A stretch of DNA of 64,000 nt from Deferribacteraceae bacterium V6Fe1 (GCA_022813675.1 CP063375.1:1438001-1502000); one strand, 5' to 3'; shown: positions 18,195 through 40,007, counted from the stretch's first letter. Numbers and translations are program-made. The notes: a model not told the origin generated them from the sequence alone.

Positions 18195-18243
18195 TATAAT
18201 CTCCTGATAAAATTTTATACAAATATAACATATTTGGATAATA

Positions 18244-24916: not shown

Positions 24917-24944
24917 AAAAACCTCCTTATTAAAAGAACATTTT

Positions 24945-24981
24945 TTGTGGCAATTTTCTGACAAATTTAATATAAATTGAT
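24945..24981 (+). promoter_or_regulatory. Candidate promoter for a leaderless Calp-like operon, with divergent TTGTCAGAAAA site
   Basis: TTGTGG (24945-24950), a 17-base spacer and TAATAT (24968-24973) precede ATG 24982 by eight bases, with no ribosome site, so the first gene is probably translated from a leaderless mRNA. The spacer contains the minus-strand TTGTCAGAAAA motif (24964-24954), which lies 43 bases before the divergent primase ATG. The two operons therefore share a 65-base control region. Confidence 0.5.
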
Positions 24982-25533
24982 ATGCAGTTAGGAAAACTTG
25001 TTAATTTTAAAAATATTTCGAGGGAACACTTTTTAAAAAAAGGTGATTTTGTTTTAATTAATGTCTGTGTTTGGAAAGAAATATCAGGTGAGTTTTTAGC
25101 TAACGATTCCGCTTTACTTATTAACAATAAGAATAAAAGAAGGCCATTAGTAATACTGGAAGTAAAGGGAGATAGTGCGTATTATATTGCATTATCAACT
25201 GATAAAAAAGTAGATAGAAAAATTAACTTAGTTTTTGATTTAAGCAAGTGCAAGATTAATGAAAGATGCGAAGACTTTAAGTTTAAGAAAAAAGCGTATA
25301 TTTTTACAAAGGAAAAAACTGTTAGAAGAAAAAAGAACACATCTGCTGTAAAAATTAAACTTACAGCTGATTTACACAAAATATTTTACCTCATTGATGA
25401 TGAGGAAACTCAAAAAAGAATATTAAGACTCTGTGGTAAAGAAATTAAGACTTGCTACGATGTATTTACCTTTTGTTCAAACTGTGACAAAACATATATG
25501 GAAGAGATTAGTATAAGGGTTAATAATGGATAG
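24982..25533 (+). CDS. MazF/PemK-like protein, extra member of the Calp-like cassette
   Basis: A 183-residue protein with a possible MazF/PemK-like beta-barrel: KKGDFVLINVCVWKEISGE, then NKRRPLVILEVKGDSAYYIALSTDKK, echoing the toxin pattern of an entry strand followed by RPvlVI and a nucleic-acid-facing loop. The basic middle (KFKKKAYIFTKEKTVRRKK) and a cysteine pair near the end (CSNCDKTY) follow. It overlaps the sigma-like gene by eight bases, and three such overlaps couple the cassette. It is not obviously CalpT, which fits the third gene better. It could be a toxin, a nucleic-acid-binding partner or an alternative protease substrate. Family assignment is tentative. Confidence 0.5.
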   Translation: MQLGKLVNFKNISREHFLKKGDFVLINVCVWKEISGEFLANDSALLINNKNKRRPLVILEVKGDSAYYIALSTDKKVDRKINLVFDLSKCKINERCEDFKFKKKAYIFTKEKTVRRKKNTSAVKIKLTADLHKIFYLIDDEETQKRILRLCGKEIKTCYDVFTFCSNCDKTYMEEISIRVNNG

Positions 25534-26164
25534 TATTTTAAATTTCTTAAAATATCCTGAACAAAATAATGAGGAAGGGTATAACAAACTTTATGGATTT
25601 TTTTGTAAAGTAGCTTCAAAATTTGAGATTCAAGATACTTTGGATGAATATCATACTTTTTTATCTAAAAAAATTTTTAGCAATAATGCGTTAAAAAGAT
25701 TTCTCGATAAAAATGAAAAAGAACAAGTGGTTTATGGTTACATTAAAAGAATGATTAATAACTATTTCTATAATGAGTATCGTAACGACTTAGCAACTAT
25801 ACCTATAGATAACCCTATTTCTGAAGATGGCGAGCTTACAATAGGGGATACTATAAAAGATGAATTTTTGGCAGATGAAATTATTTTTGAAGCTTTTAGT
25901 TTGCTAAATTTAATTGATAATGGTTTTTCTGAAAAAAAGAAGAAAATACTATGTCAGTATTTGTATGCAGGTGAGTATATTTTTATTAACGATATGAAGC
26001 AAGATGCTTTTTACAAATCTGTAGAAAGGCTCAAAAAAGAGCTGACAGAGATATGTATTTCAAATAAATTTTCAGAAGAGGCTGTTACTTTTTTTATTCA
26101 AAATATTTATTTGTCAGAAATATGTGAAAAATATCGTCTAATAGGTAGAGGTCAAAATGAGTAA
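25526..26164 (+). CDS. calpS: CalpS-like sigma factor (ECF type), divergent
   Basis: A 212-residue helical protein that looks like a divergent extracytoplasmic-function sigma factor. A region-2-like stretch (VVYGYIKRMINNYFYNEYRND) is followed by an acidic linker and a C-terminal helical, region-4-like segment (FSEKKKKILCQYLYAG...AFYKSVERLKKELTEIC). In Sulfurihydrogenibium the SAVED-Lon protease CalpL cuts CalpT to release the sigma factor CalpS; the position here, immediately before a CalpT-sized and a CalpL-like gene, supports the same role. Direct sequence evidence alone is weak. Eight-base overlaps with both neighbours imply fixed stoichiometry. Confidence 0.65.
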   Translation: MDSILNFLKYPEQNNEEGYNKLYGFFCKVASKFEIQDTLDEYHTFLSKKIFSNNALKRFLDKNEKEQVVYGYIKRMINNYFYNEYRNDLATIPIDNPISEDGELTIGDTIKDEFLADEIIFEAFSLLNLIDNGFSEKKKKILCQYLYAGEYIFINDMKQDAFYKSVERLKKELTEICISNKFSEEAVTFFIQNIYLSEICEKYRLIGRGQNE

Positions 26165-27026
26165 AAGGTTAGAGGAGCTATACACAAAATACTTAGCCAT
26201 AAAAAAATTATCAAATGATGATTTTGTTGAAAAGAAGGGTGATTATAAAATGTTTTTAGAAAATTTAGAAAATATTAAATTTAATGAATCAGATACAGTT
26301 CAGCCTGAGTATGAAATAGGCGAGTTGTTCTTGGTGGACGACTTTTTATTCTTGCTTGTAGGCGAAGTAGATGATTTTTATACAGGCTATAAAGTATCTG
26401 AGTGGGTAGATTTCGCTACCCATAAAGATTTTATTTTTGAGTATGAAGGGGATAAATACTTTGCAATATTGGAGCATGAATTGTATATCCCTAAAAATAA
26501 GGTTGTGCATTATATCGGCACAATTTCGGATAAATATATTGACGTACTTTATGAACACGAAAGCACCGGAGAGCCAATCCCTGACAGTTACACAGGGCTG
26601 ACTATCCCTTATGACGACGAATATGTGCAAATTAAATTTAGACAAAAAGAAATGAAAGAAGTGAGACATTACATAGCTAATCAATTTTTAATCTTTGAGG
26701 AAGAATCAAATATATTGGACTTAAAAAGTTTTAAACAAAAATTTGTGGATAAGCTTAAAAAATTAAATTATCCAAAAGCGGCGTCTTCGGCCACATCTAC
26801 AGCTCAAGGTGAAAATTTTATTTTAAAATATGATAAGGCAAAAGGTATCTTAACAATCTTATTACCTATTGAAAGTAAAGATGTTGGCATTATAAAAGTA
26901 ATTATTGAAGATGATGAATTTTTATGTAAGGTTGAAGAAGATGTCATCAGTTTTGACATTCTTGATGATTTTATAAATATTGACTATTTAGTGGGTAGAA
27001 TCAAGATAATCCTTTTAAATGACTAA
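26157..27026 (+). CDS. calpT: CalpT-like MazF-fold anti-sigma, protease substrate
   Basis: A 289-residue protein, about 33 kDa, the size of known CalpT. The middle (YEIGELFLVDDFLFLLVGEV through DKYIDVLYEHESTGEPI, residues 48-135) has the strand pattern of a MazF-like barrel. A small-residue linker, PKAASSATSTAQG at about 206-218, separates a C-terminal domain of about 75 residues. Cutting there would give fragments of roughly 24 and 9 kDa, matching the CalpT23/CalpT10 split known from Sulfurihydrogenibium. AGAGG five bases before ATG 26157. Role inferred: holds CalpS until cleaved. Confidence 0.7.
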   Translation: MSKRLEELYTKYLAIKKLSNDDFVEKKGDYKMFLENLENIKFNESDTVQPEYEIGELFLVDDFLFLLVGEVDDFYTGYKVSEWVDFATHKDFIFEYEGDKYFAILEHELYIPKNKVVHYIGTISDKYIDVLYEHESTGEPIPDSYTGLTIPYDDEYVQIKFRQKEMKEVRHYIANQFLIFEEESNILDLKSFKQKFVDKLKKLNYPKAASSATSTAQGENFILKYDKAKGILTILLPIESKDVGIIKVIIEDDEFLCKVEEDVISFDILDDFINIDYLVGRIKIILLND

Positions 27027-28527
27027 GCTGGCAAAATATATTACTGATAGTGAAAAATATGATATTTTATTAAGTGCTATCAATGATGGAAATTTCTTAC
27101 CCGGCAGCGAGTTAAAAGATTATTATAACATCTTTGTTGATAGTAATTTTACTGAAAAAGAAGAATTAAAATCTGCTTTATTTTTTGCAATAAAAAGGTA
27201 TGAAAAGTTTCAGGATTTTTCTTTACTTTCCTCTTTACTTAATATTAGTGAAAATTCGTTAACCAATCTATTTAAATCAAATTATAAAAAAGCGACATTT
27301 CCTATTTCAGATAACACTGAAGCGGAATTAGTAAACTTGTATTTGATAGAAGTTGAAGATGAAATACCTGTAAGCTTCCCAAATACGGAAGCTTTAAGAT
27401 TAAATAGTATTCAAAATATAAAGAAAACTTTAAACAAAAACTTTTTTGTATTCTTTGATAAATGTTTTAGTGGCAGATCATTTGGACTTGCTGTCGCATC
27501 TTGTTTTTATGTCTCTGATGAAATAAGAGAAAGGTTTATTTTTACAGGTGAAGTAAGGGCTGATGGCGGAGTATATGATGTTGATGGGTTAGAGTTAAAA
27601 TTTAAAGTAGCACATCAAAATAATAAATATTTGGTGAGTAGCAGATATATTTCTCATATTTCTGAACTGAAGCATATTAATAGTAACGAGCTTAATGTAC
27701 CATTTGTACAGCTTTTTGGCAAAAGTAAGAGTGAGCTTGATAAAAACTTTAAAAAATTAAAAGGGTATACTCCTGAGAGTGCTGTTTTACTTAATATTTT
27801 TGGGTTTAGCCAAGAGGATTTATCTGTTTTTACCGAAGATTATTTAAATAATGAAATTAATGATTATGCAAAATATTTGAATGAGTTTTACGATAAGGTA
27901 AAAAAGCTTTACGATACTAATATAGGTATAAATCTTCATATTATGGGTAGTCTTTCTTCGTTTGCATTTTTAATGGGGCTTGTTTTAGGTGCAAAGAAAA
28001 AATTTGCAATTTATCATTATCAGGATGGAGAAATTTACAAAGTATATGATTTTATTAATCAAAGTGCGAGAAAACTTAAAGGTAAAAAAAATAATTTTTC
28101 ACATATTCAATACAAAACTAAAGTTATTAACGCAAACTCTACTGATTTGTTAGTTTCAATATATTTGGCAAGTCACAGTCCTAAAAGTGATGCATCCAAA
28201 TTTGCTTCTCAAACTTTAAAATGTAATATTGTTGAGATTGAGCTAAAAAATCATCAAGGCAATTTGCCCATAGATAATCAAGAATTGTGGATAGAAATTG
28301 TTAGAGAGATTTATAGTGCTTTAGATAATTTTTTCGAAGAGTTAGGCAACAATGTAGAGAGATACCATATTATTCTTAGCACTCCTGTCCCTATTGCTAT
28401 TGCTTTGGGAATGGCTATAGGTGATTATAAAAAGGTATCAGTTTATAATTTTGATAAGAAAATCATTGGCTATAAAAAAGTTTTTGATTCAGATTTTGCT
28501 GAAGGTACTTTTTTAAATAGCTTTTAA
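27019..28527 (+). CDS. calpL: CalpL-like SAVED-Lon protease
   Basis: A 502-residue protein. A Lon-type protease domain lies at about residues 120-240: the nucleophile is probably Ser154 in CFSGRSFGLAVAS, followed by FTGEVRADGGVYDVDG and a Lys at 194 or 196 (LELKFKVAH), the Ser-Lys dyad spacing of Lon. The C-terminal half is a SAVED domain (INLHIMGSLSSFAFLMGLVLG; YHIILSTPVPIAIALGMAIGDYKK), which binds cyclic oligonucleotides. In the known system cA4 makes CalpL oligomerise and cut CalpT. An N-terminal helical region of about 115 residues precedes the protease. Last gene of the cassette; converges on the outer-membrane protein gene. Confidence 0.88.
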   Translation: MTKLAKYITDSEKYDILLSAINDGNFLPGSELKDYYNIFVDSNFTEKEELKSALFFAIKRYEKFQDFSLLSSLLNISENSLTNLFKSNYKKATFPISDNTEAELVNLYLIEVEDEIPVSFPNTEALRLNSIQNIKKTLNKNFFVFFDKCFSGRSFGLAVASCFYVSDEIRERFIFTGEVRADGGVYDVDGLELKFKVAHQNNKYLVSSRYISHISELKHINSNELNVPFVQLFGKSKSELDKNFKKLKGYTPESAVLLNIFGFSQEDLSVFTEDYLNNEINDYAKYLNEFYDKVKKLYDTNIGINLHIMGSLSSFAFLMGLVLGAKKKFAIYHYQDGEIYKVYDFINQSARKLKGKKNNFSHIQYKTKVINANSTDLLVSIYLASHSPKSDASKFASQTLKCNIVEIELKNHQGNLPIDNQELWIEIVREIYSALDNFFEELGNNVERYHIILSTPVPIAIALGMAIGDYKKVSVYNFDKKIIGYKKVFDSDFAEGTFLNSF

Positions 28528-28546
28528 AGGGAGGTTGCCCCCCCCG

Positions 28547-29122
28547 TTAAAATTTAAATCCAGCTTCTATATTAGTTTTATACCCCCCTAATTGAAGAGT
28601 TTCTGAAGTATATTCAATTTCTTGATTGTTCGTAAAAATTTTAAAGTTTCCTCCAATATAAAAATTGTTTGTAATATCAAATAATAAGCCCGCTTGTATG
28701 ACTACTCCAAGAGCAGTTCCTGTATCGCTATAGACCTCATCCCCATCAAGTGATATTTTTATTTCATTAACATAAGAACCAAAACCCAACCCTACATAAG
28801 GAGTAAATTTTTGATAGGTATTTTGTAAAATAACAGATGTTTCAAAAGCTGTAGTATTTATTTCATCTTTGGCATCATATCCATAAATAGAGTAATTATA
28901 TTCAGTATTATGCCCTGAAATTTCGAATCTTAATCCAAGAAAATCAGAAAACTTTCTTTGGTAATAAATACCAAAATTAGTGCCGGTATCATATTCTGAT
29001 ATATCACCGGCAGGGTTAAAGATTCCTAAATTGGCTCCAATATAGTTTTTTTTCAAATCGGCGCCAGATGCTGCAATAACCATTAGAAAAAGGATTAGTG
29101 TAACTAAATTCAGTTTTTTCAT
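28547..29122 (-). CDS. Outer-membrane beta-barrel protein
   Basis: A 191-residue protein with a signal peptide (LVTLILFLMVIAASGA), alternating aromatic beta-strands (YIGANLGIFNPAG; FTPYVGLGFGSYV; NNFYIGGNFKIF) and a terminal Phe (IEAGFKF), typical of small eight-stranded porin-like barrels. GGAGG ribosome site. It is the only non-CRISPR-type gene between the Calp cassette and the cas operon and lies antisense to both. The upstream region contains ATGTCAGAAAT at 29198-29188, a variant of the shared motif. Function unknown; perhaps a displaced chromosomal gene. Confidence 0.8.
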   Translation of the reverse strand: MKKLNLVTLILFLMVIAASGADLKKNYIGANLGIFNPAGDISEYDTGTNFGIYYQRKFSDFLGLRFEISGHNTEYNYSIYGYDAKDEINTTAFETSVILQNTYQKFTPYVGLGFGSYVNEIKISLDGDEVYSDTGTALGVVIQAGLLFDITNNFYIGGNFKIFTNNQEIEYTSETLQLGGYKTNIEAGFKF

Positions 29123-29213
29123 ATTACCTCCAATTTAAATTTATTAGCTTTGCGCAAAGCATACAACAAAAAACAATAAAATTTTTAATTTCTGACATTT
29201 TTTTTTAACTTTA

Positions 29214-29242
29214 TTTGAAATTTCAAAAAAACATGATAAAAT
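29214..29242 (+). promoter_or_regulatory. Promoter of the type III-A operon with overlapping palindrome
   Basis: TTGAAA (29215-29220), a 16-base spacer and TAAAAT (29237-29242) preceded by TGA form a good promoter, 20 bases before the cas6 ATG at 29262. The -35 lies within the perfect 14-base palindrome TTTGAAATTTCAAA (29214-29227), a plausible operator for a dimeric regulator. This is the only promoter I can see for the ten-gene operon. Confidence 0.55.
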
Positions 29243-29261
29243 TTATACGTGCGGGGGTAGT

Positions 29262-30176
29262 ATGGGTATGATAATTAATTATGATTCTTTTAACTTTCTT
29301 CTAAAACTTGAAAAAAATATTTTTACAAGTACTTATCCGGCTTTTGTTTTAAGGTCTATCTTAGGTAAAGAATTAAAAAGATTTGCTTGTATTTTGAGGC
29401 ATAAGAAATGTGAAGAGTGCCCATTAAAGTTTCAGTGTGCATATTCTTATATTTTTGAAACACCGATTAAAAAAGATACAGAATTTTTAGTAGGAAGAGA
29501 TAAAGCTTCTCATCCTTTTACATTGTATTCAAATATAGATGAAAATCAGCACACTGATAAAATAGATTTTACTATTTCATTATTTGGTAAGGGTATAGAA
29601 TATTTTCCATACATATTTTTTGGATTTTTAAAAGGTGGAGAAAACGGTATATATAGAGAAAGAACAAAATATACTATTGAAAAAGTTACTTGTGGTGATT
29701 TTTTAGTAAATGATGGCACTAATGATTCGATTGAATTATCTGAACCTAAAACATTTCAGTTAGATGAAGATAAAACAACTCTTATTGAAAAATCTTACAG
29801 TATAAAATTTATTACTCCGGTTAGATTAAAGGTTGCTGGCAACTACACGGCCAATATCTCATACTCAGATATAATTTTTTCTGCATTTAGAAGGTTAGAA
29901 GTACTTGGTAATATGTATGGCAAGATTAGTCCAGAGTTAAAAAATATAAATTCATTGTCAGAAAAAGAAGAGAAGAAGTGTCTAAGGTGGAAAGAGTATA
30001 ACAGATATTCCGCCAGACAAAAATCAGCAATGAAGCTTGGTGGAGCTGTTGGAGTGATAGACGTCAAAGGAAAGTTTACTCCTTTTGAAATATCACTTTT
30101 GGAATTTGCGTCTATATTTGGACTTGGCAAAAACACAGGCTTTGGTTTTGGAAAAGTAGAAGTGGAGGAAGTTTGA
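29262..30176 (+). CDS. cas6: CRISPR pre-crRNA endoribonuclease Cas6
   Basis: A 304-residue RAMP protein of the Cas6 type that has a zinc-binding insertion (CILRHKKCEECPLKFQCAYSYIFE, residues 46-68) and ends with the glycine-rich G-loop FASIFGLGKNTGFGFGKVEV. It should cut repeats to leave the ATTACGAC handle. GGGGGT lies before ATG 29262. First gene of the interference operon; its stop overlaps the card1 start by four bases. The catalytic His/Tyr/Lys cannot be fixed by eye. Confidence 0.9.
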   Translation: MGMIINYDSFNFLLKLEKNIFTSTYPAFVLRSILGKELKRFACILRHKKCEECPLKFQCAYSYIFETPIKKDTEFLVGRDKASHPFTLYSNIDENQHTDKIDFTISLFGKGIEYFPYIFFGFLKGGENGIYRERTKYTIEKVTCGDFLVNDGTNDSIELSEPKTFQLDEDKTTLIEKSYSIKFITPVRLKVAGNYTANISYSDIIFSAFRRLEVLGNMYGKISPELKNINSLSEKEEKKCLRWKEYNRYSARQKSAMKLGGAVGVIDVKGKFTPFEISLLEFASIFGLGKNTGFGFGKVEVEEV

Positions 30177-31342
30177 TGGGTAGGAAGGTGCTTGTATCAC
30201 TGGTAAGTGCACAGACTGTTCCAAATATACTATTTATTGATGAGTTTAGAAAAAAATATAACTTTAATTACTATATCTTTGTTACTACTGATAAAATGGA
30301 AAAAGAGCTTAGAAGTAATGCCATCATTGATACTTGTAATTTGGATATAAACAATTGTGAAAAACTCGTTGTTAGTGAAGATTATTTTAAAGATGTTATA
30401 GATAAATTGAAAAAAATATATAATGAGAGCGATGAATATTTTTTTAATTTGACAGGTGGTACCAAAATAATGTCTTTGGGTTTGTATGAGTTTGCCAAAG
30501 AAATAAAGCAAACTGATAACCTATTTTACATCCCTAATGGGAAGAATTTTGTAGCAAATATTACATCCGATAGCATTCAAGAGATAAATTATCGACTAAA
30601 CATTAAAGAGTATTTTTCTTCTTATAATGTAAATATTAAAAACTTAGATAAGCTATCTGGTGCATTAGATTGTGCAAAAAAGCGAGAAAAATACACTTAT
30701 ATTCTTTGGGAATACTTTAATGAAAATGTGGTCTCCTTTAGGCAAACATCTGAAGAGATTAGAAAATACTGGAATTCAGATGAAGTTAAAAACAACGAAA
30801 AGAAAATTGATATTAATAGACTTATAGACATAGGCAAAGATTTTTTTGAAATACTAAATTTAGACATTGGTGGCGAATCAAAAAAACATATAAAATATTG
30901 GATAAAATACTTAACAGGTGGATGGTTTGAAGAGTTAATCTATTTTGAAGCAAAAAAGTTTTTAAATCTTGGTGACGAATATATTAATTTAGGAATCGAA
31001 ATAGACAAGGGAGGAGATAATGAACTAGATGTTGTTTTAGCTTTTGAAAATAAGCTTTATTATATAGAGTGTAAAACCGGGCTTGGGCAAAAAGAATCCG
31101 AAGTATTAAAGGAAACATTTTACAAGCTTTCACATTTGAGAAGTCAGGAGGCTTTTGGGCTTGGAATGAACAATATTTTGATATCATTGGATGAAGAAGT
31201 TTTGTATGATAAAAATGGTATGTTAAAGGATAAGTATAAGTTAGCAAGAGATTATTATAAATTAAAATTTTATGGACTTAGAGATTTCAGAGAGAAAGGT
31301 TTAAATGGTATTTTAAAAGAAATATTTAATAAGGGGGCATAG
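30173..31342 (+). CDS. card1: Card1/Can2-type CARF nuclease effector
   Basis: A 389-residue protein. The N-terminal CARF domain shows the ligand-loop motif YFFNLTGGTKIMSLGLYEFA near residues 90-108. The C-terminal PD-(D/E)XK nuclease has NELDVVLAFENKLYYIECKTG (residues about 283-303; Asp, Glu and Lys of the site all present). This is the DUF1887 layout of Card1/Can2, which is activated by cyclic tetra-adenylate and nicks DNA and cuts RNA. It sits between cas6 and cas10 with overlapping or abutting ends. One of three signal-driven effectors in the locus. Confidence 0.92.
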   Translation: MMGRKVLVSLVSAQTVPNILFIDEFRKKYNFNYYIFVTTDKMEKELRSNAIIDTCNLDINNCEKLVVSEDYFKDVIDKLKKIYNESDEYFFNLTGGTKIMSLGLYEFAKEIKQTDNLFYIPNGKNFVANITSDSIQEINYRLNIKEYFSSYNVNIKNLDKLSGALDCAKKREKYTYILWEYFNENVVSFRQTSEEIRKYWNSDEVKNNEKKIDINRLIDIGKDFFEILNLDIGGESKKHIKYWIKYLTGGWFEELIYFEAKKFLNLGDEYINLGIEIDKGGDNELDVVLAFENKLYYIECKTGLGQKESEVLKETFYKLSHLRSQEAFGLGMNNILISLDEEVLYDKNGMLKDKYKLARDYYKLKFYGLRDFREKGLNGILKEIFNKGA

Positions 31343-33727
31343 ATGGAAAACTTACAATTGGAGAGTTCGCTTATCGGAGTTGCCGCTTTTTTACATGACA
31401 TTGGCAAAGTATACCAAAGAACGGGCAATAAATTACCAGATAAATATTCTAGGAATTCATATGAGAGGCAGCTTATTTTAAATAGAGATTCTCATCTACA
31501 TGCGCTATATACGGCAGCATTTTTTGATGATTTTATTGAAGAAACTACAATTTACCATTTGTGGAAAAAATCTTTTCCTGGTGTATCTATGCAAAAAGCT
31601 TCTTCTGGTCATCACAACCCTGATGATTATTTGACTAAAATTATTGCAAATGCTGATCAGATAGCTTCAGGTTTTGATAGGGAGAGATATGAAGAAAGGC
31701 AACAAAAAGGGAAAAAAGATTATCGAAAAGTACACTTAGCACCGCTATTAAAGCATATAACTTTACAAAGTGAGAGCTATAATGCTGACTATCGATATAA
31801 ATTAGAATCTTTGTCAACAAGCTCTATTTTTCCAGTTCCCAAAGAAGAAGTAACTAATATAAATGCTGAAGATAATTACAGAAAGTTGATAGAAAAATTT
31901 GAAAAAGATTATAAAAAAATTTCCAACAGCTACTCAATCAAAAATTATATAAATGGTCTACAGTCAATTTTTGAAAAGCACTTTTCATTTGTGCCTTCAT
32001 CTACTTGGGATGAATATGATGAAATATCATTATACGACCATTCAAAGACAACAGCAGCTTTTGCTTCAGCAACATATAACTATATGGTAGAAAAAGACAT
32101 TGAAGATGCAAAAAATCTTAAACACGATGAAGAGAGGTTTCTACTCATCAGAGGTGAATTTTTTGGAATACAAAAATTTATTTTTGGAAGCACATCTGAG
32201 TCGAATAAAAACCCTGCCAAAGTATTAAGAGGTAAATCTTTTTATGTGACAATGTTGTCAGAAATTGCTGGTCAATATTGTTTAAATGTATTGAATCTAC
32301 CTACTTTTAATCTTTTACTAAATGCTGCTGGGATGTTTGTGATATTGGCCCCAAATACAGATAAAAGTAAGCAAGAAATTTCCAGGTTGAAAAAAGAAAT
32401 TAATGATTGGTTGTATAACAGTTTTTTTGGAGAAGTTTCATTTGGAATAGCTACTACTACGGCTACATCGGATGATTTTTCCGAAAAGAGATTTGAAAAA
32501 TTATGGTTAGAGTTACTGACTGAACTTGAAAAAGAAAAGTATTCAAAGTTTGATTTGCCATCTAAGCCTGCTGTTTTTGAAAATTACTATAAATGTTTTG
32601 ATGATGGTACATTATGCAAAACATGTGGTAAAAACGTTGCTATTGAAGATGAATGTGAATTTTGTTTAGATTTTAAAGAAATCGGTAAACAGCTTGTTAA
32701 TAACAGGTTTATTTATCTAATGAGCAAGAGTAAAGGCAAGATATTTAATAAATTCGATTTAATGTTTTCTGATAAATTTGAAGATAAAGAAGGGATAGAA
32801 AAAATTATAGATCTTAGTCCCAATAAAGAATTTTTAGGTGCTTATGTGACATATATAAATAATTATGTTCCTAAAAAGGGGGGTGAGCCTAAATCTTTTG
32901 AAGATATGGTTTCAGTAGAGGGTAAAAGTGAAAAAAAACCATTAGGGGTAATTAAAGCAGATGTTGATAATTTAGGTGCTATTTTTGCTGTTGGTTTAGA
33001 GCCTCATAAGCATGAAGCTGAAATGAATTACCGATTAACGTTTTCAAGGTTGTCTGCTTTATCAAGAATGATGAATATGTTTTTTTCATATTATCTTCCA
33101 AAAGTTTGTGAAAAGGAATTCCCTGAGATATACACAGTATTTGCTGGTGGGGATGATTTATTTTTAATAGGTCCTTATGACCAAATTATTGAGCTTTATT
33201 TTATTATTAACAAGGATTTTAAAAGATATACAGGATATAATAATGAAATAACATTGTCCGCAGGTATATCAATATTTAAGCATAGCACACCGGTTGCATA
33301 TATGGCTGAAGTAACCGAAGATAAGTTAATGTTAGCTAAGAGTAAATCCGGAAATATGTTTGATAAAGGTTATATGACACTGTTTAATGCCACAGCCAAG
33401 CCGGAAGATTTTGAGCACTTATCTGATAAATTTGATGAAATATTTGGTGGAGGATTTAGTGGAATTGATAAAAGTTCAAGCAGCTCTTTCTGGTATAAAA
33501 TATTAAGTTTACTTGATATGAGGATCAAATTGAATGAATCAAATAAGCAAAATCTACATAACATAATGTGGCTACCGCGATTAAAATATCTTCTTGCAAG
33601 AACAATTAAAGATAACTCACTAAGAGAAAAATGTGCAGAATTTTTACATAATGCCATAAGCGAAAAGCCGGAATTGTTTAGGGCAATAATTACAAAAAAT
33701 ATATATTATCAAAGGTATGGAGGTTAA
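31343..33727 (+). CDS. cas10: Type III-A Cas10 (Csm1) with HD nuclease and cyclase
   Basis: A 794-residue signature subunit. The HD nuclease motif is intact (FLHDIGK, His18-Asp19), a zinc site CKTCGK...CEFC lies near residues 425-442, and the second palm domain has the cyclase motif FAGGDDLFL with GGDD at 602-605, so both ssDNA cleavage and cyclic oligoadenylate synthesis are expected. The GVIKADVDNLG motif before GGDD is also present. The start is the ATG directly after the card1 stop. The size and the csm2-5 order define subtype III-A. Confidence 0.97.
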   Translation: MENLQLESSLIGVAAFLHDIGKVYQRTGNKLPDKYSRNSYERQLILNRDSHLHALYTAAFFDDFIEETTIYHLWKKSFPGVSMQKASSGHHNPDDYLTKIIANADQIASGFDRERYEERQQKGKKDYRKVHLAPLLKHITLQSESYNADYRYKLESLSTSSIFPVPKEEVTNINAEDNYRKLIEKFEKDYKKISNSYSIKNYINGLQSIFEKHFSFVPSSTWDEYDEISLYDHSKTTAAFASATYNYMVEKDIEDAKNLKHDEERFLLIRGEFFGIQKFIFGSTSESNKNPAKVLRGKSFYVTMLSEIAGQYCLNVLNLPTFNLLLNAAGMFVILAPNTDKSKQEISRLKKEINDWLYNSFFGEVSFGIATTTATSDDFSEKRFEKLWLELLTELEKEKYSKFDLPSKPAVFENYYKCFDDGTLCKTCGKNVAIEDECEFCLDFKEIGKQLVNNRFIYLMSKSKGKIFNKFDLMFSDKFEDKEGIEKIIDLSPNKEFLGAYVTYINNYVPKKGGEPKSFEDMVSVEGKSEKKPLGVIKADVDNLGAIFAVGLEPHKHEAEMNYRLTFSRLSALSRMMNMFFSYYLPKVCEKEFPEIYTVFAGGDDLFLIGPYDQIIELYFIINKDFKRYTGYNNEITLSAGISIFKHSTPVAYMAEVTEDKLMLAKSKSGNMFDKGYMTLFNATAKPEDFEHLSDKFDEIFGGGFSGIDKSSSSSFWYKILSLLDMRIKLNESNKQNLHNIMWLPRLKYLLARTIKDNSLREKCAEFLHNAISEKPELFRAIITKNIYYQRYGG

Positions 33728-33728
33728 T

Positions 33729-34163
33729 ATGGAAGATTTAAAAAAATTTATGATTAAAAATAACAATATTGGGGAGTTGATACGAAATGAAGCTGAAGAA
33801 TTTGCAAAAAAATTGTCAAATGATTTCTTAATTGTAACTAGAAGAGGTAGACCTGAAAATGAGAAAAAAGTAAATAGTACCTCTCAGATGAGAAGTTTTT
33901 ATGACAGCTTGTTTTCATACTATAACAAGATAGTAAATAGCAATGATAAAGAATCAACTTTTAAAACATTGCTACCTTCAATATATCTTGTTGCATCAAG
34001 GGTGGCTTATGCTAATGGAAAAAAGAATGCTGGTAATATTTTTACTGAATTTATGGTTAAAAATATATCATCTATTGAAACATTAGAAGATTTTGACTCT
34101 TTTTTAAAGTTTTTTGAAGCAATACTTGGTTATTATAAATTTCTTAACCCAAATATTAATTAG
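33729..34163 (+). CDS. csm2: Csm2 small subunit
   Basis: A 144-residue helical protein in the csm2 position. Features: a basic N-terminal half, TSQMRSFYDSLFSYYNKI (the S-Q-hydrophobic-R motif typical of Csm2) and LLPSIYLVASRVAYANGK. Start set at ATG 33729, five bases after GGAGG; the earlier in-frame ATG at 33717 overlaps the cas10 end. Csm2 lines the crRNA-target duplex in the effector complex. Confidence 0.92.
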   Translation: MEDLKKFMIKNNNIGELIRNEAEEFAKKLSNDFLIVTRRGRPENEKKVNSTSQMRSFYDSLFSYYNKIVNSNDKESTFKTLLPSIYLVASRVAYANGKKNAGNIFTEFMVKNISSIETLEDFDSFLKFFEAILGYYKFLNPNIN

Positions 34164-34172
34164 GAGGACAGT

Positions 34173-34871
34173 ATGAACATTAAAAATATTACAGGAAAAA
34201 TAATATTAGAGAGTGGGTTACACATTGGTGCGGGAGACTCAGAAATGCATATTGGAGGAGTTGATAATCCAGTTATTAAGGATGCAATATCAGGCAGACC
34301 ATATATCCCAGGTAGTAGTATTAAAGGAAAAATAAGAAGTTTGTTAGAATACTACATGAATATACATATGAAGTATAATACCAAGGGCCAACCTTTACAA
34401 GCAAAACACTTAGAAGATGAAAGTAAAAAAATTGAAGAAAATGATAAAGATATTATAAAATTATTTGGTACTAGTGGTAGTGATTCTAACAAGCATGAGT
34501 TTGGTATTACTAGGACTATTTTCAGTGATGCACATATCAATGAAGCTTCGGTGAAGTCTTTAGAGCTTAAAACTGGCCAACTAACTGAAATAAAGGCTGA
34601 AACTGCAATTGATAGAGTAAAAGGTACTGCTTTAAATGGAAGTCTAAGGTTTATAGAAAGAGTGCCTCGAGGAGCAGAATTTAATTTTTCTGTATCTTTA
34701 AAGACGTTTCCTAATGATGATTTCGACTCGTTAAAAAGTACACTTCTAAAAGGGTTCAAGCTATTGACTTTAGATGCTCTTGGAGGGTCAGGTAGCCGTG
34801 GATATGGTAGAGTATCTATTAAATTTGATGATGAAAATTTACAAAAAGAGTTTGAAGATACTAAACTTTAA
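34173..34871 (+). CDS. csm3: Csm3 backbone subunit (target-RNA nuclease)
   Basis: A 232-residue RAMP. GLHIGAGDSEMHIGGVDNPV near the start carries the conserved Asp31, which by position corresponds to the catalytic Asp of Csm3 that cuts target RNA at six-base intervals. PYIPGSSIKGKIRSLLE, AETAIDRVKGTAL and a GGSGSRGYGRV G-loop are all typical. GGAGG ribosome site. Confidence 0.96.
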   Translation: MNIKNITGKIILESGLHIGAGDSEMHIGGVDNPVIKDAISGRPYIPGSSIKGKIRSLLEYYMNIHMKYNTKGQPLQAKHLEDESKKIEENDKDIIKLFGTSGSDSNKHEFGITRTIFSDAHINEASVKSLELKTGQLTEIKAETAIDRVKGTALNGSLRFIERVPRGAEFNFSVSLKTFPNDDFDSLKSTLLKGFKLLTLDALGGSGSRGYGRVSIKFDDENLQKEFEDTKL

Positions 34872-34885
34872 ATAATGAGGTTGAT

Positions 34886-35815
34886 ATGAAATATTATAAA
34901 GCTAAAATAAAGCCGACTTCACCTTTCGGCACAAATCCTATGTCCGATACGATTTTTGGACAATTAGTATGGACTTTGTCTGATATGGGTGAAGATTTAT
35001 CTAAATTGCTGGCTGATTACGACACCTCACCTTTTTTGGTAGTATCTGACTTTTTACCTTTTAATATGGGAAATGTGCCTAAAATTCCCACTATATACAA
35101 GGTAGAAGGTGCTAAAAATGACAAAATAAATAAAATTTTGGAACGTAAAAAAATTAAGGCAAAAAATTATATTAGCATAGAAACTCTATATAGTACTGCC
35201 AGTTTAAATAAGAATAAAATTGTTGAACTTGCTCAAGCATTAGTCAAATTTAATAAATCTGCTGAAATTATCAGATGTTCAATAAATAGAAAAACCGGCA
35301 CTACTGGGGATGGTTTTGACCCTTATCCTGTTTATGATACTTTTTTTACCGATAATGCTGAATTTACATTTTATTTTTATATTGCTGATGAGAGTAATTT
35401 TGGAATGATTCAGGAAGCTTTAGAATTAATCGGTAAAACCGGATTTGGCAGGGATGCTTCTCTTGGTAGAGGACAATTTGAAGTTTTAGAATTTGACGAA
35501 ATAGAGTTTAGCCCTGAAAATAAAAACGCTATATATACCCTTGGTAATGTTGCATTAGAAGGGTTATCTGTTGAAAGAGCATATTATGAGCCTTTTACTC
35601 GCTTTGGACGTCATGGAAATATTAGAGCTGTAATGGGTAATCCTTTTAAAAATCCTTTAGTGATGGCTTTACAAGGTGCTTTACTTTTTGGGGATAATAA
35701 TATCTTTTCTAAACCTTATATTGGCAAATCTATTAGAAAATTATCATATTATGGCGATACTGTTCAGCAGGGTTATTCTCTTTATATCCCAATAAATGTG
35801 GAGGTGCAACCATGA
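34886..35815 (+). CDS. csm4: Csm4 (crRNA 5'-handle binding RAMP)
   Basis: A 309-residue RAMP protein with the Csm4 opening (YYKAKIKPTSPFGTNPMSDTIFGQLVW), an internal glycine-rich TGFGRDASLGRGQF and an ending GALLFGDNNIF...YYGDTVQQGYSLYIPI. Csm4 caps the complex next to Cas10 and holds the repeat-derived tag. Its stop overlaps the csm5 start by four bases. Confidence 0.93.
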   Translation: MKYYKAKIKPTSPFGTNPMSDTIFGQLVWTLSDMGEDLSKLLADYDTSPFLVVSDFLPFNMGNVPKIPTIYKVEGAKNDKINKILERKKIKAKNYISIETLYSTASLNKNKIVELAQALVKFNKSAEIIRCSINRKTGTTGDGFDPYPVYDTFFTDNAEFTFYFYIADESNFGMIQEALELIGKTGFGRDASLGRGQFEVLEFDEIEFSPENKNAIYTLGNVALEGLSVERAYYEPFTRFGRHGNIRAVMGNPFKNPLVMALQGALLFGDNNIFSKPYIGKSIRKLSYYGDTVQQGYSLYIPINVEVQP

Positions 35816-36963
35816 GTGTAATGAAACAATTTAAAATATCTGCATATTTGGCATCTCCAATCCATATTGGCACCGGTGATACGTTAGATCCATTTTCATA
35901 TGTTATTAAAGATAAAAAGTTATATAGATTTGATACATCAGCGTATATTTCAAAGTTAGAAAGTAATAAAATTAATCAAATTACTCAAATTTTGAAAAAA
36001 CCTTCTTTGTCTTCTACCTTAGAAGCTCGTAAATTTATCTATGATAATTTTGAATATGAAAAAATGAAGGATATAATTTTTGAGGAGCAAGATTTAAATA
36101 AAGGGTCGTTTGGTGCAAGCTATGAAAAAAATTTATCTTCTTTAGCTAATAATGACCCAAGAAATAAAGCTATGAATCAGCTTGAAATTGAAGCAATTTA
36201 TAGCTCTGGAGGAGTTCCCATTATACCCGGTTCATCTATAAAAGGTTCTATAAGGACAGCTATTATTAATAAAATTATTGAAGATGAGGGTATACATTAT
36301 AATCCTAAGGAAATTAATGCGTATAAAAATTTGATGAAAAATATGAATTTTTCTTTTACTGATGATATTTTTAAATGTTTAAAAATATCCGATTTTTCAC
36401 CTACTAAAAAAGAGGTTAGAAAGACAGTTGGATATTTCCTCAACTTTCCTAAAAACTCTTTAGATAAAGAAATAGGTGATACTACGATGTCTGTAGCTGC
36501 TGAAGTCATAATGCCATTTCAGTTATTTATAGGGGAGATTTCTGTGAGTGCAGTTCCTGAACATACATACAAGAGTCAGTTTAAAAAAATATTAGCTGAC
36601 AAAACAGAGCTATTTAAATGCCTTAATAGACACTATCTCGAATTATTTAAAAAAGACTACAAACTATTTGAAAGTAATGCTCCAAAAAATATGTTTGTAA
36701 CTGTTGCTAAAGAACAATTTTTAGAAAAGTTAAGTAATAATGATTATGCTGTTATCAAAGTTGGTAAACATTCTGGTGCTGAAGGTGTGACTTTTAAAGA
36801 AAGAGCAATTACTATTAAAGGCAATAAAAAAAGACAGACTGTTTACGATGCTAAGGAACCTGGAACTGTTTGGTATTTCTCAAGATATAATTCTAAAGAT
36901 TTAAAACAGCTGTCTCAAAAAGAAAAAGAGATATTTCCTTTGGGGTGGATGGTATTGATATAA
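35812..36963 (+). CDS. csm5: Csm5 RAMP subunit
   Basis: A 383-residue RAMP at the crRNA 3' end of the complex. Features: SPIHIGTGDTLDPFSYVIKD at the N-terminus, GGVPIIPGSSIKGSIRTAI near residue 128, and a C-terminal ITIKGNKKRQTVYDAKEPG...FPLGWMVLI. GGAGG lies upstream of ATG 35812. The stop codon TAA shares its last base with the ATG of the next gene (TAATG). Confidence 0.93.
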   Translation: MSVMKQFKISAYLASPIHIGTGDTLDPFSYVIKDKKLYRFDTSAYISKLESNKINQITQILKKPSLSSTLEARKFIYDNFEYEKMKDIIFEEQDLNKGSFGASYEKNLSSLANNDPRNKAMNQLEIEAIYSSGGVPIIPGSSIKGSIRTAIINKIIEDEGIHYNPKEINAYKNLMKNMNFSFTDDIFKCLKISDFSPTKKEVRKTVGYFLNFPKNSLDKEIGDTTMSVAAEVIMPFQLFIGEISVSAVPEHTYKSQFKKILADKTELFKCLNRHYLELFKKDYKLFESNAPKNMFVTVAKEQFLEKLSNNDYAVIKVGKHSGAEGVTFKERAITIKGNKKRQTVYDAKEPGTVWYFSRYNSKDLKQLSQKEKEIFPLGWMVLI

Positions 36964-39041
36964 TGCAACAAAGTATACTAATTACTACACTTGGTCACTC
37001 GTGGCAGTTAATTCCAGAACTCATTGGGTTTACTAACCCAAATAATTTTGGTTTTTATTACGAGCATCCTGATGCAGAAAAAATTAATGTATTAAGGCGT
37101 TTAAACAGTATAAAGCCAATTAATGAAGTATGGGTTATTTCAACTGATAATAAAGTAGCACTTGATTCTATTAAAATATCAAGAGACTGGCTAAATAGCC
37201 AGACTCTTGATATCACCTTAAGAGCTTTTGTCCTTAAAGGTGTTTCCGATTTGATCAGTGTTGAACATTGTAGGCAAATGGGTAATTTGATTTACTCTGT
37301 AGTTTTAGCTGGGAAAAAATATTCGAGGGATGGTCAGCTTATTTTATCTTTAAGTGGTGGCCGTAAAACTATGAGTGCAGATATGCAGGAAGCCGGAAAT
37401 ATTTTTGGTTTTGATGCTATGATTCACATAATAGATGATGGCAATACTCCCCAAGATTTTAAAAACTCTATCGACATAAATACCAAATATTGCAAACATT
37501 TTATGCCAATTGTTGCTTTTGGTAAAAAAGAAGCCAGTAAAATTGTTTATTTAGAACCAAATATATTTAATGTTAAACAATATGAGATAGATATTGATTA
37601 TACACAATATTTAAATCCTGATACAAGTCTTTATGAAGAAATTGAGGAAAGGCGTAAAAAATCAAGAAATATAGCTTTTAATTTTTATCAAAAAATCTAT
37701 CAAAGCGAGCCATCGTCAAATTTTTATTCTCTTTACTTTTTAGAGCCTGATAAAATCAAGGTTTTAAAAGATAAAAAAATAGATAAATTTGACTATAGGT
37801 TAATAAAAAGACTACCAAAAGCTGAACTACATTGTCACTTAGGGGGAATAGCTAACTCTGAGGAAATTATAGAAATAGCTTATGCGAACATACACAAAAT
37901 AAAAACTTTAAGAAAAGAAAATGAAGAATATAATAATTGGTTAAATCTGGTTAAAGAATATATAGTAAGTGGCAATTTATCGACACTTGAGGATTGGGTT
38001 AAAAATTGTAAACAAAAATTATTTAGGCCTTTTGATACCATTCCAGAACCATATAATCTGGCTGGCTTTCTTGTACAATTTCAAGGTTATGAAGATATTT
38101 TGGATAAGCTTATATATGGTAAATATTTACAAAGTGAAAAATTTGCAAATATTGGAATAGAGGAATATTCAAGTTTGGGAGATTTACAGGGCTCAGGCCT
38201 ATTACAAACTAAGGAATCGCTGATAGCTGCTTGTAATATCTTAAAAAGAAAGGCAAAAGAACATAATGTAAAATATCTTGAACTGCGATGCTCACCAAAT
38301 AATTACACTAAATGTGATTTAAGTGTTAGTGATGTAGTAAATACTCTCATTGAAAACTTAAAATCAGAAGATACGATATTTAAACTTATTTTTATTGCAA
38401 CAAGACATAAAAAAATGAGTGAAATCTATCAAATTTTAGAGTTTGTTTTAGAAAATATTGATAATAAAAACAATGATTTTGCTGAAATGTTTGTTGGTTT
38501 TGATTTAGCCGGTAATGAAGAACTTAGAAAGCCGGTAGAGTTAAGAAATGCTTTTTTACCAATTTTAGAAAAATGTCTAAAAATTACTATACATGCAGGT
38601 GAAACTGCTGAAGCTGAAAGTATATGGGAAGCTATTTATCATTTAAGTGCCGATAGAATAGGGCATGGATTAAAATTATTAGAAAAAAAAGATTTGATAG
38701 AAAAAATAAAGGAAAGAAAAATATCTATAGAGTTGTGTCCTTCCAGTAATAAACAGATATTAGATTTTACTACAAAAGAGTATCCTCTAAATAAATATTT
38801 AAACGAAGGGCTTAGAGTCACAATCAATACTGACAATATTGGTATTTCAAGGACTGATTTCACTAATGAATACATAATTGCTTCAAATTTAATAAATAAC
38901 AATTTAAATTTTTGGGAAGTTTTACAATTGATTAAAAATTCATTTATATCTGCTTTTTGTAAAGCCGATGTTAGAAAAGATTTAGTTTTACAAGCTGAAA
39001 GAGAAGTGTTGGAGATAATTAATGAAGAATTCTTTAAATGA
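36963..39041 (+). CDS. cad1: Cad1-type CARF-adenosine deaminase effector
   Basis: A 692-residue fusion. Residues 1-170 are a CARF domain (ILITTLGHSWQLIPELIGF; LILSLSGGRKTMSADMQEAG as ligand loop). Residues from 285 on are an adenosine deaminase: AELHCHLGG with metal His290/His292, HAGETAEAESIWEAI (His544, Glu547), RIGHGLKLL, and INTDNIG (Asp624). Enzymes with this layout (Cad1/CAAD) are activated by cyclic oligoadenylate and convert ATP or dATP to the inosine form. The start is the TAATG overlap with csm5. The Nudix gene starts 20 bases inside its 3' end. Confidence 0.93.
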   Translation: MQQSILITTLGHSWQLIPELIGFTNPNNFGFYYEHPDAEKINVLRRLNSIKPINEVWVISTDNKVALDSIKISRDWLNSQTLDITLRAFVLKGVSDLISVEHCRQMGNLIYSVVLAGKKYSRDGQLILSLSGGRKTMSADMQEAGNIFGFDAMIHIIDDGNTPQDFKNSIDINTKYCKHFMPIVAFGKKEASKIVYLEPNIFNVKQYEIDIDYTQYLNPDTSLYEEIEERRKKSRNIAFNFYQKIYQSEPSSNFYSLYFLEPDKIKVLKDKKIDKFDYRLIKRLPKAELHCHLGGIANSEEIIEIAYANIHKIKTLRKENEEYNNWLNLVKEYIVSGNLSTLEDWVKNCKQKLFRPFDTIPEPYNLAGFLVQFQGYEDILDKLIYGKYLQSEKFANIGIEEYSSLGDLQGSGLLQTKESLIAACNILKRKAKEHNVKYLELRCSPNNYTKCDLSVSDVVNTLIENLKSEDTIFKLIFIATRHKKMSEIYQILEFVLENIDNKNNDFAEMFVGFDLAGNEELRKPVELRNAFLPILEKCLKITIHAGETAEAESIWEAIYHLSADRIGHGLKLLEKKDLIEKIKERKISIELCPSSNKQILDFTTKEYPLNKYLNEGLRVTINTDNIGISRTDFTNEYIIASNLINNNLNFWEVLQLIKNSFISAFCKADVRKDLVLQAEREVLEIINEEFFK

Positions 39042-39612
39042 TATACTTGTTTTTAAGAGAAAAGATATAAAGAAAAAGTATTTAAAAGAAAAAACTGTAA
39101 TTAATATAACAGAAAAACAACTTATTAAAGATTTTAAACCGGAGTCGATTAATTTTATTGAACGGGATAAATGCGAAAATAATGTAGAATATAAACAAAT
39201 TATTCCCTATCTGCTTGTAACTTATCTTAACAAAATGGCGTGTTATCAGAGAAATGGCAGTGAGAATAGATTGCATGGAAAATATTCGGTAGGTATTGGT
39301 GGGCATGTAGAAAAACAGGATTATGTTTATCAGGCATTAATACCGACAATACATAATGCAATTTATAGAGAGCTTTCTGAAGAGTTTTTGGACTTTAATT
39401 TTTATGAGACAGAATTGGCTTTTTTAGGAGTTATTAATGAAGAGCTTACAGATGTAGGTCATACTCACATTGGATTTGTTTATTTATTAAATACAGCAAA
39501 ACAGTTTGCTCCGGGTAAAGAATTAGATAATCTTGAGTGGTTAGACATTGCAGACATTTATGAAAAAGACTTAGAGCTTTGGAGTAAACTCGCACTGGAG
39601 CTAATGTTGTGA
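39022..39612 (+). CDS. Nudix hydrolase coupled to Cad1
   Basis: A 196-residue protein with a Nudix box in slightly expanded form: GIGGHVE (residues 92-97) and AIYRELSEEF (REL-x-EE at 116-121), then a typical strand run ending EELTDVGHTHIGFVYLL and NLEWLDIADI. Nudix enzymes hydrolyse nucleoside diphosphate linkages. Its gene begins inside cad1, implying translational coupling and a shared pathway: probably breakdown of the ITP/dITP made by Cad1, or further depletion of ATP-derived nucleotides. From memory, a Nudix partner of CARF-deaminases has been reported; not verified here. Confidence 0.85.
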   Translation: MKNSLNDILVFKRKDIKKKYLKEKTVINITEKQLIKDFKPESINFIERDKCENNVEYKQIIPYLLVTYLNKMACYQRNGSENRLHGKYSVGIGGHVEKQDYVYQALIPTIHNAIYRELSEEFLDFNFYETELAFLGVINEELTDVGHTHIGFVYLLNTAKQFAPGKELDNLEWLDIADIYEKDLELWSKLALELML

Positions 39613-40007
39613 CAAAACTTTTCTTAATCTTTAGCCATAAATTAACTGTTGAGCAGGTGAGGGATGCAAAAGAGAGTCTGGGGATTGATGAGTTTGTATC
39701 TCTTCCCGATAATTTACAAGCTATTTGGAGTCAGGTTTCACCATATAGTGAATTGCCGTTAACTGAGCTTAACAAGATTGTAGACTGGCTAAAATTTGAA
39801 TCTAACAAAGGAGATTATATTTTAGTGCAGGGTGATTTTGGAGCTACTTTTTATGTCGTGGACTTTTGTTTAAAAAATAACTTAATACCTGTTTATTCCA
39901 CAAGCAGAAGAATCTCAGTGGAAAAAAACGGCAATAATGGTAAAATAGTAAAAACTAATATTTTTGAACATGTAACCTTTAGAAGATATAAATATTTTGC
40001 GTTTTAG
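39609..40007 (+). CDS. csx20: Csx20-type ring nuclease
   Basis: A 132-residue protein that matches the small CRISPR-associated Csx20 family by its opening (KLFLIFSHKLTVEQVRDAKESLG), FVSLPDNLQAIWSQV and the CARF-like GDYILVQGDFGATFYVVDFCL with a basic end. Csx20 proteins cleave cyclic tetra-adenylate and so switch the response off. It starts at GTG 39609, overlapping the Nudix stop by four bases. It is the last gene of the operon, directly before the array-2 leader. Confidence 0.8.
   Translation: MTKLFLIFSHKLTVEQVRDAKESLGIDEFVSLPDNLQAIWSQVSPYSELPLTELNKIVDWLKFESNKGDYILVQGDFGATFYVVDFCLKNNLIPVYSTSRRISVEKNGNNGKIVKTNIFEHVTFRRYKYFAF

What the first reader, a model, noticed from the sequence alone, without database searches (positions are those of the whole stretch)
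24945..40007. Type III-A locus with three different signal-driven effector classes plus a ring nuclease
One Cas10 with an intact GGDD cyclase is accompanied by a CARF nuclease (Card1-like), a CARF-adenosine deaminase (Cad1-like), a SAVED-Lon protease cassette (Calp-like) and Csx20. Each class is known on its own. Seeing nuclease, nucleotide-pool and sigma-factor outputs layered in one locus, with no Csm6/Csx1, suggests graded or ordered responses to the same messenger. The sequence shows the motifs; the ordering idea is inference.
Basis: partly seen in the sequence, partly recalled or inferred. Interest (0 to 1): 0.85.

Follow-up and report, generated by a model that had tools for sequence, protein, structure and literature searches.

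The report
Three-effector type III-A CRISPR locus
This bacterial immune locus wires one alarm-molecule synthase (Cas10) to three different predicted weapons plus off-switches; each weapon is of a known kind, but the set is rare, stays together in three related species even where the alarm complex itself was swapped for another type, and comes with an unrecognised extra gene and a shared promoter-like element.

Summary
Window 24982-40007 holds a complete type III-A complex (HD+GGDD Cas10) with a Card1/Can2-like nuclease, a Cad1-like CARF-deaminase, CalpL/T/S and Csx20; catalytic residues are intact. The 'graded or ordered' reading has no sequence support; one shared messenger, most likely cA4, feeding three parallel outputs fits better, with Csx20, CalpL and perhaps Cad1 as off-switches. 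Among 68 stretches with CalpL, all three classes occur together only in this genus (three species); Card1+Cad1-Nudix+Csx20 without Calp occurs in one unrelated genome. New points: (1) in one sister species cas10-csm5 is replaced by cmr1-6 while flanking effectors stay 87-94% identical in DNA; (2) C3a162 precedes calpS in 49 of 59 loci, is profile-similar to PemK/MazF toxins and has four conserved cysteines; (3) a bipartite element WTGTCAGA-N15/16-TGTY precedes PrimPol-cas1-cas2 and other CRISPR-linked genes (21 hits in 260 kb, shuffles 0-2). CalpS is a candidate reader of it, untested. Verdict: a new combination of known parts, with new leads in the Calp branch.

The parts
24982..25533 (+). 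C3a162-family gene, first gene of the Calp operon; PemK/MazF-like profile, four conserved cysteines
   Evidence: PADLOC PDLC01080 E=9.3e-28; precedes calpS in 49 of 59 loci; hhalign to PemK E=1.2e-4
25526..26164 (+). CalpS, ECF-like sigma factor (by position and PADLOC HTH match)
   Evidence: PADLOC HTH E=6e-11; same gene order in 59 loci
26157..27026 (+). CalpT, anti-sigma factor
   Evidence: PADLOC CRISPR-T E=9e-24; family profile matches CalpT10 of 8b0u
27019..28527 (+). CalpL, Lon protease-SAVED; protease and ring-nuclease residues intact
28547..29122 (-). outer-membrane beta-barrel protein, present also in sister genome G012, absent from G013
   Evidence: Pfam OMP_b-brl above cut-off
29262..30176 (+). 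Cas6
   Evidence: PADLOC E=4.6e-73
30173..31342 (+). Card1/Can2-like CARF nuclease, D286/E299/K301 present
31343..33727 (+). Cas10/Csm1 with HD and GGDD
   Evidence: TIGR02578 636 bits; motifs
33717..36963 (+). csm2, csm3, csm4, csm5 (33717-34163, 34173-34871, 34886-35815, 35812-36963)
   Evidence: ORFs and order; same genes recognised in relatives by iterated profiles
36945..39041 (+). Cad1-like CARF-adenosine deaminase, metal-site residues and CARF GGRK present
   Evidence: PADLOC CARF_ADA E=5.5e-194; 9c67
39022..39612 (+). Nudix-family hydrolase, RELSEE present; follows cad1 also in G012, G013 and G272
   Evidence: 3e57 E=1.2e-17
39609..40007 (+). Csx20, ring nuclease family
   Evidence: NF040559 160.6 bits, cut-off 70
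18839..20204 (+). CRISPR array 1, 19 repeats of 36 nt
40308..41309 (+). CRISPR array 2, about 15 repeats, repeat differs from array 1 at a few positions
21891..23171 (-). Cas2 (21891-22172) and Cas1 (22173-23171)
   Evidence: read from sequence and recognised across relatives
23168..24916 (-). CRISPR-associated primase-polymerase (PrimPol/CAPP); listed ORF begins at 24964 but the likely start is the ATG after AAGGAGG
   Evidence: NF040561 291 bits, cut-off 200; start context
24937..24964 (-). element WTGTCAGA-N15/16-TGTY before PrimPol
   Evidence: conserved in G012, G013, G014 (two loci), G008
18227..18254 (-). same element before sbcD-sbcC (likely sbcD start ATG near 18194)
13665..13692 (-). 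same element before the TPR-cold-shock-domain gene 12351-13637
   Evidence: also before the homologue in G012 and G013
29172..29198 (-). same element before the outer-membrane protein gene
   Evidence: also in G012

Best explanation
A chromosomal type III-A CRISPR system with one Cas10 cyclase and three parallel effector arms read out, most likely, through one messenger, cA4. Target RNA activates Cas10; cA4 (i) turns on the Card1-like nuclease, (ii) turns on Cad1, which makes ITP from ATP, with the co-encoded Nudix enzyme probably hydrolysing the ITP so that the ATP drain is effectively irreversible, and (iii) turns on CalpL, which cuts CalpT and frees sigma factor CalpS to change transcription. 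Csx20, the CalpL SAVED domain and perhaps the Cad1 CARF domain destroy cA4 and end the response. The arms behave as a portable set: the same set surrounds a type III-B core in a sister species. Shown here: gene content, family membership, intact catalytic residues, conservation and core swap. Inferred from relatives: messenger identity, activities, Nudix substrate, shut-off.
For: Family and structure-homologue matches for every part; catalytic residues; the whole set kept in G012 and G013; same effectors around csm or cmr genes with flanks at 93.8% and 87.3% DNA identity, both Cas10s with GGDD, as expected if the effectors need only a messenger both cores make; Card1+Cad1-Nudix+Csx20 in unrelated G272. 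Literature: CalpL is a cA4-activated protease and cA4 ring nuclease (PMC11417357); Csx20 is a cA4 ring nuclease (PMC12409355); TaqCad1 converts ATP to ITP on cA4 and cleaves cA4 (PMC12669630); loci with several effectors usually share one activator (PMC11229360).
Against: No biochemistry on these proteins. BabCad1 prefers cA6 and does not cleave its ligands (PMC11645235), so this Cad1 may use another messenger and may not be an off-switch. The Nudix role rests on my memory of Li et al. 2025 (Science 387, eadr0393), which is not held. What the CalpS arm transcribes is unknown.
Confidence: 0.75

Rival explanations
1. One reading: the arms fire in order or by grade as the messenger rises, for example the transcriptional arm first and the ATP drain and nuclease later.
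For: Three outputs of very different cost sit on one messenger. Published sensor affinities differ between relatives (PMC11645235, PMC11417357).
Against: Nothing in the sequence encodes an order: card1, the cas10-csm genes, cad1, nudix and csx20 lie in one run of overlapping genes, and relatives share cA4 as activator (PMC11229360).
Confidence: 0.15
2. Two channels: Cad1 answers mainly to cA6 while Card1, CalpL and Csx20 answer to cA4, so Csx20 would silence two arms and leave the ATP drain running.
For: BabCad1 binds cA6 about 25-fold tighter than cA4 (PMC11645235); Csx20 cleaves cA4, not cA6 (PMC12409355).
Against: TaqCad1 prefers cA4 (PMC12669630); effectors with different messengers rarely share a locus (PMC11229360).
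Confidence: 0.2
3. The set is mere accumulation: defence genes gather by transfer and recombination, and the effectors are redundant backups, for example against phage anti-CRISPRs, with no coordinated logic.
For: Subsets occur freely: Calp+Cad1, Calp+Card1, Card1+Cad1; cores are exchanged; other defence-like genes lie near.
Against: The full set, in order and with csx20 last, is kept in three species at protein identities from about 34% (C3a162) to 99%, so it has lasted.
Confidence: 0.3
4. The Nudix enzyme is protective: it cleans ITP to limit self-damage from Cad1 rather than completing ATP depletion.
For: A Nudix-family relation and pairing with Cad1 fit either role.
Against: From memory, Li et al. 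2025 describe ITP hydrolysis as the second step of ATP depletion; pyrophosphate removal would make the drain irreversible.
Confidence: 0.3
5. The shared WTGTCAGA-N15/16-TGTY element is a plain sigma-70-type promoter of these genes, or the site of an unrelated regulator, and has nothing to do with CalpS.
For: TTGTCA is one base from a TTGACA -35 box; no relative with PrimPol but without Calp exists in this phylum to test against.
Against: The conserved part is longer (TGTCAGAAA) and the -10 side is not TATAAT-like; whole-genome counts cluster at this locus.
Confidence: 0.6

Closest known systems
CalpL/CalpT/CalpS of Sulfurihydrogenibium (PMC11417357)
   Same: Lon-SAVED protease, CalpT and CalpS in one operon; protease and ring-nuclease residues conserved
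   Different: A fourth gene, C3a162, comes first here and in most Calp loci; the papers I could read describe a tripartite system
Cad1/CAAD (BabCad1 PMC11645235, TaqCad1 PMC12669630, LngCAAD of Li et al. 2025)
   Different: Longer (698 aa) and distant from all solved ones; followed by a Nudix gene (pairing known from memory for LngCAAD)
Card1 of Treponema succinifaciens / Can2
   Same: CARF plus PD-(D/E)XK nuclease, catalytic residues present
   Different: Low sequence identity; activator untested
Multi-effector type III loci of the published survey (PMC11229360)
   Same: Several effectors beside one Cas10, presumed one messenger
   Different: The triples reported there were Csx1+Can1-2+Cam1 (three loci); this triple is Card1+CalpL+Cad1. 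Cad1 is not among that survey's ten known effectors
Csx20 ring nuclease (PMC12409355)
   Same: Equivalog-level match
   Different: There most strongly linked with Csx1; here no Csx1 in the locus
CRISPR-associated primase-polymerase, CAPP (PMC8211822)
   Same: NF040561 match above cut-off, next to Cas1 and Cas2
   Different: In this phylum it occurs in the same six genomes as CalpL, usually divergent from the Calp operon

Membership tests
Type III-A CRISPR-Cas | Csm1-type Cas10 with csm2-csm5 | tested here: met
   TIGR02578 636 bits against cut-off 170; csm2-5 in order
Type III-A CRISPR-Cas | Cyclase motif GGDD in Cas10 | tested here: met
   GGDD 602-605
Type III-A CRISPR-Cas | Makes cyclic oligoadenylate on target RNA | not testable with these tools
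   Needs biochemistry
Card1/Can2 | CARF_Card1 and Card1-like endonuclease domains | tested here: met
   Both Pfam models above cut-off
Card1/Can2 | Catalytic D, E, K | tested here: met
   D286, E299, K301 by alignment to 6wxw
Cad1/CAAD | CARF plus adenosine-deaminase domain over full length | tested here: met
   PADLOC CARF_ADA residues 10-695; Pfam A_deaminase 166 bits
Cad1/CAAD | Deaminates ATP on cA4/cA6 | not testable with these tools
   Needs biochemistry
Calp system | Lon-SAVED protease with Ser-Lys dyad | tested here: met
   S154 and K194 aligned to S152/K193
Calp system | CalpT and a sigma factor encoded beside CalpL | tested here: met
   CalpT10 match; calpS by position and HTH match
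Csx20 | NF040559 equivalog score | tested here: met
   160.6 bits against cut-off 70
Nudix hydrolase | Nudix fold and REUXEE motif | tested here: met
   3e57 homologue E=1.2e-17; RELSEE at 116-121
Nudix hydrolase | Full GX5EX7REUXEEXGU box and Pfam NUDIX cut-off | tested here: not met
   17.6 bits against 21.1; box lengthened before REL. Called Nudix-family by homology to 3e57 only
PemK/MazF toxin (for C3a162) | Pfam PemK_toxin score above cut-off | tested here: not met
   One of 43 members hits at E=0.063; window protein none
PemK/MazF toxin (for C3a162) | Profile-level relation with conserved Arg-Pro and Thr/Ser | tested here: met
   hhalign E=1.2e-4, score 31.1 against at most 13.6 in 100 column shuffles; R54-P55 invariant. 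Probability only 55%
PemK/MazF toxin (for C3a162) | MazF fold | tested here: inconclusive
   Models of low confidence (pLDDT 56 and 33); E. coli MazF 5co7 at rank 13, TMt 0.52, E=0.97

The most novel reading that the evidence does not exclude
The Calp arm is a four-gene switch, and the sigma factor it frees reads the shared WTGTCAGA-N15/16-TGTY element, so that cA4 signalling turns on spacer acquisition (PrimPol-Cas1-Cas2) and DNA-processing genes, tying interference to adaptation, while the interference core is an exchangeable cassette inside a fixed set of effectors.
Probability: 0.2. Interest if true: 0.85.

Novelty: new variant of a known kind. Interest (0 to 1): 0.6.

Why it matters
How several effectors on one messenger divide the work is open; [quoted passage not shown] Sister species with the same effectors around a Csm or a Cmr core make the question directly testable by swapping cores. 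A conserved fourth Calp gene means that the published three-protein switch may be incomplete. What CalpS transcribes is not stated in any paper I could read; the shared element gives a concrete candidate regulon.

Tried and rejected
1) I first read the conserved element as a calp/cas6 promoter on the + strand. Rejected: on the other strand it fits start codons better, and in G006, where calp is not divergent from PrimPol, it is absent before calp while a degenerate copy lies before PrimPol. 2) I first took C3a162 for CalpT and the 289-aa protein for an unknown gene; the CalpT10 match settled it. 3) The genome-contig scan with CalpL found only two loci of this phylum; the genome search was used instead. 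4) Structure models of C3a162 stayed poor and Foldseek was not significant. 5) CalpL was not found in viral contigs or plasmids; the repeat of array 1 was not found in viral contigs and array 1 had no match in phage records. 6) The control for CalpS as regulator (relatives with PrimPol but without Calp) could not be run: full-length PrimPol and CalpL occur in the same six genomes of the phylum. 7) The original Calp and CAAD-Nudix papers and the accessory-gene survey are not held. 8) A bipartite-motif count over all upstream regions including other phyla was no better than shuffles; the element is specific to this phylum's loci.

Full report
WHAT IS THERE. The window is base 1438001-1502000 of a 2.36-Mb single-contig genome. 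Two homologous loci in named records are titled Calditerrivibrio and Deferribacteraceae, so the phylum is Deferribacterota; the genome itself is unnamed. Between 24982 and 40007 on the + strand lie C3a162, calpS, calpT, calpL, (an outer-membrane protein on the - strand), cas6, card1, cas10, csm2-5, cad1, nudix and csx20, most junctions overlapping by a few bases. To the left, on the - strand, is PrimPol-cas1-cas2; two arrays with nearly identical repeats flank everything.

FAMILY EVIDENCE. Each part was tested with profile libraries and against sequences of solved structures. Cas10, Csx20, PrimPol, SAVED and both Card1 domains pass curated cut-offs; Cad1 matches PADLOC's CARF_ADA over its whole length. 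Catalytic residues are present in all three effectors and in Cas10. The effectors' folds were not modelled here; the fold claim rests on homology to solved relatives.

A Nudix-family gene overlaps the end of cad1. From memory, Li et al. 2025 (Science 387, eadr0393; listed in the references of PMC12669630, paper not held) pair a Cad1-type deaminase with a Nudix hydrolase that turns ITP into IMP. Second, the Calp cassette has a fourth gene. The 289-aa protein is CalpT: its family profile hits the CalpT10 chain of 8b0u. The 183-aa gene ahead of calpS belongs to PADLOC family C3a162, function unknown.

HOW COMMON IS THE SET. CalpL was sought in this phylum, in 385 genomes sampled across the domain and in three further phyla. 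Stretches from these genomes were assembled and genes assigned with iterated profiles; 68 stretches carry CalpL. Calp together with Card1, Cad1, Nudix and Csx20 occurs only in the three species of this genus. Calp+Cad1 without Card1 occurs in three genomes of another phylum, Calp+Card1+Csx20 in five stretches, Calp+Card1 alone in two. Many contigs are short and other effector classes were not profiled, so these are lower bounds. Among the few full-length Cad1 genes elsewhere, G272 carries Csx20-Card1-Cas10-csm-Cad1-Nudix-Cas6-RT-Cas1 without Calp. In the published survey of 1113 loci CalpL is in 17, seldom alone, and triples are rare (PMC11229360).

CORE SWAP. Against sister genome G012, window 24926-31346 aligns at 93.8% and 36975-41315 at 87.3% DNA identity, but the stretch between them, cas10-csm5, is replaced by cmr1-cmr6. 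Identity is 92-100% from C3a162 through cas6, falls from 90 to 76% through card1, and rises again from about 71% at the start of cad1 to over 90%, as expected if exchange ran through the flanking effector genes. G014 holds two loci, one III-A and one III-B, that share the cas6-cas1-PrimPol-calp region at 95-97%; there the Card1-like gene sits with the III-A core and a TIGR02221-family gene with the III-B core. So interference cores move in and out of a standing set of effectors, adaptation genes and arrays. Both Cas10s of the G000/G012 pair keep GGDD. The direction of the exchange was not determined.

FOURTH CALP GENE. C3a162 directly precedes calpS in 49 of 59 loci; the ten exceptions are seven genomes of one family, whose CalpS is longer, one other genome, and two loci with a short or interrupted copy. 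In the stretches read it was not found away from calpS except for those two. Gaps are overlaps or a few bases. Across 53 members R54 and P55 are invariant and four cysteines are 94-98% conserved. Profile-profile comparison with 22 PemK proteins gives E=1.2e-4, probability 55%, score 31.1; 100 column shuffles of PemK reach at most 13.6, and the other locus families compared with C3a162 at most 13.8. Plain Pfam PemK does not accept it, and structure models were poor. Working hypothesis: an RNA-binding or RNA-cleaving protein made in step with the sigma factor; confidence about 0.3.

SHARED ELEMENT. Upstream regions revealed WTGTCAGA-N15/16-TGTY. In 260 kb of Deferribacterota sequence around these loci it occurs 21 times, against 0, 0, 2, 0 and 0 in second-order shuffles; 16 are intergenic and all 16 point at a nearby start: PrimPol (six loci, one cut by a contig end), a TPR-cold-shock gene known to PADLOC as CRISPR-associated (three), an uncharacterised gene near cas1 (MRNLKILFWNVKNKD..., two), the outer-membrane protein (two), cas6 of G014 (two loci) and sbcD (one). 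In the whole G000 genome ATTTTCTGACAAW (the same core on the other strand) occurs five times, four of them in window 13.7-25 kb. A wider form, AACA-N13..15-TTTCTGAC, also has five matches there, four in this region, while its reversed control totals five as well, so it is the placing, not the number, that stands out. The pattern was found after looking, so the figures are descriptive, and several sites are orthologous or duplicated copies, not independent. CalpS is a natural candidate reader because a Calp cassette is present in every genome examined, but these genomes were chosen for having one; an ordinary promoter with a TTGTCA -35 box is the plain rival and, I think, more likely.

MECHANISM. 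Most likely: target RNA binding, cA4 synthesis, parallel activation of Card1, Cad1(-Nudix) and CalpL, cleavage of CalpT, release of CalpS, and shut-off by Csx20 and the SAVED ring nuclease. Shown here are gene content, motif integrity, conservation and the core swap; every biochemical step is carried over from relatives. The ordering idea has no evidence for or against it beyond differing affinities of relatives.

VERDICT. A real, intact and unusual combination of known modules: new variant of a known kind.

Noticed in passing
window 7399-10686 (-): TPR-CHAT protein (1095 aa, CHAT peptidase domain E=2e-54), a possible further defence or signalling protease outside the CRISPR operons.
   Followed up: no
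window 12351-13637 (-): TPR protein fused to a cold-shock-like domain, PADLOC CRISPR-associated family PDLC01170 (E=1.4e-126); its homologue in G006 lies directly behind cas1.
   Followed up: partly
window 44546-47371 (+) and 47450-52234 (-): A helicase resembling BrxH/DrmD/HmaA proteins and a 1594-aa protein matching PADLOC candidate PDC-S37: a possible second defence system next to the CRISPR locus.
   Followed up: no
window 19502-19686 and 19872-20056: A 185-nt stretch of array 1 (spacers and repeats) is present twice, identical: an internal duplication of spacers.
   Followed up: no
window 20620-20686 and 41734-41897: Short tandem repeats of AACTTAG type lie a few hundred bases beyond the right end of each CRISPR array, suggesting that array and flank were once copied together.
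   Followed up: no
L028 7070-11017 and L030 13386-16700: In G014 (two calp loci) the III-A cas10 is interrupted by an inserted ORF of 455 aa, and in the other locus C3a162 is interrupted by an insertion.
   Followed up: partly
whole phylum (51 genomes): Full-length PrimPol/CAPP and CalpL occur in the same six genomes, and in another phylum PrimPol also lies divergent from calpS: adaptation polymerase and Calp travel together in two lineages.
   Followed up: partly
window 18839-18874 compared with 24937-24964: The first 20 bases of the CRISPR repeat (ATTGGAATTTTTGACCTGAC) look loosely like the element before PrimPol read on the + strand (G013: ATTGGAAATTTTCTGAC); may be chance.
   Followed up: no
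window 54308-54405 (-): A selenocysteine tRNA gene.
   Followed up: no
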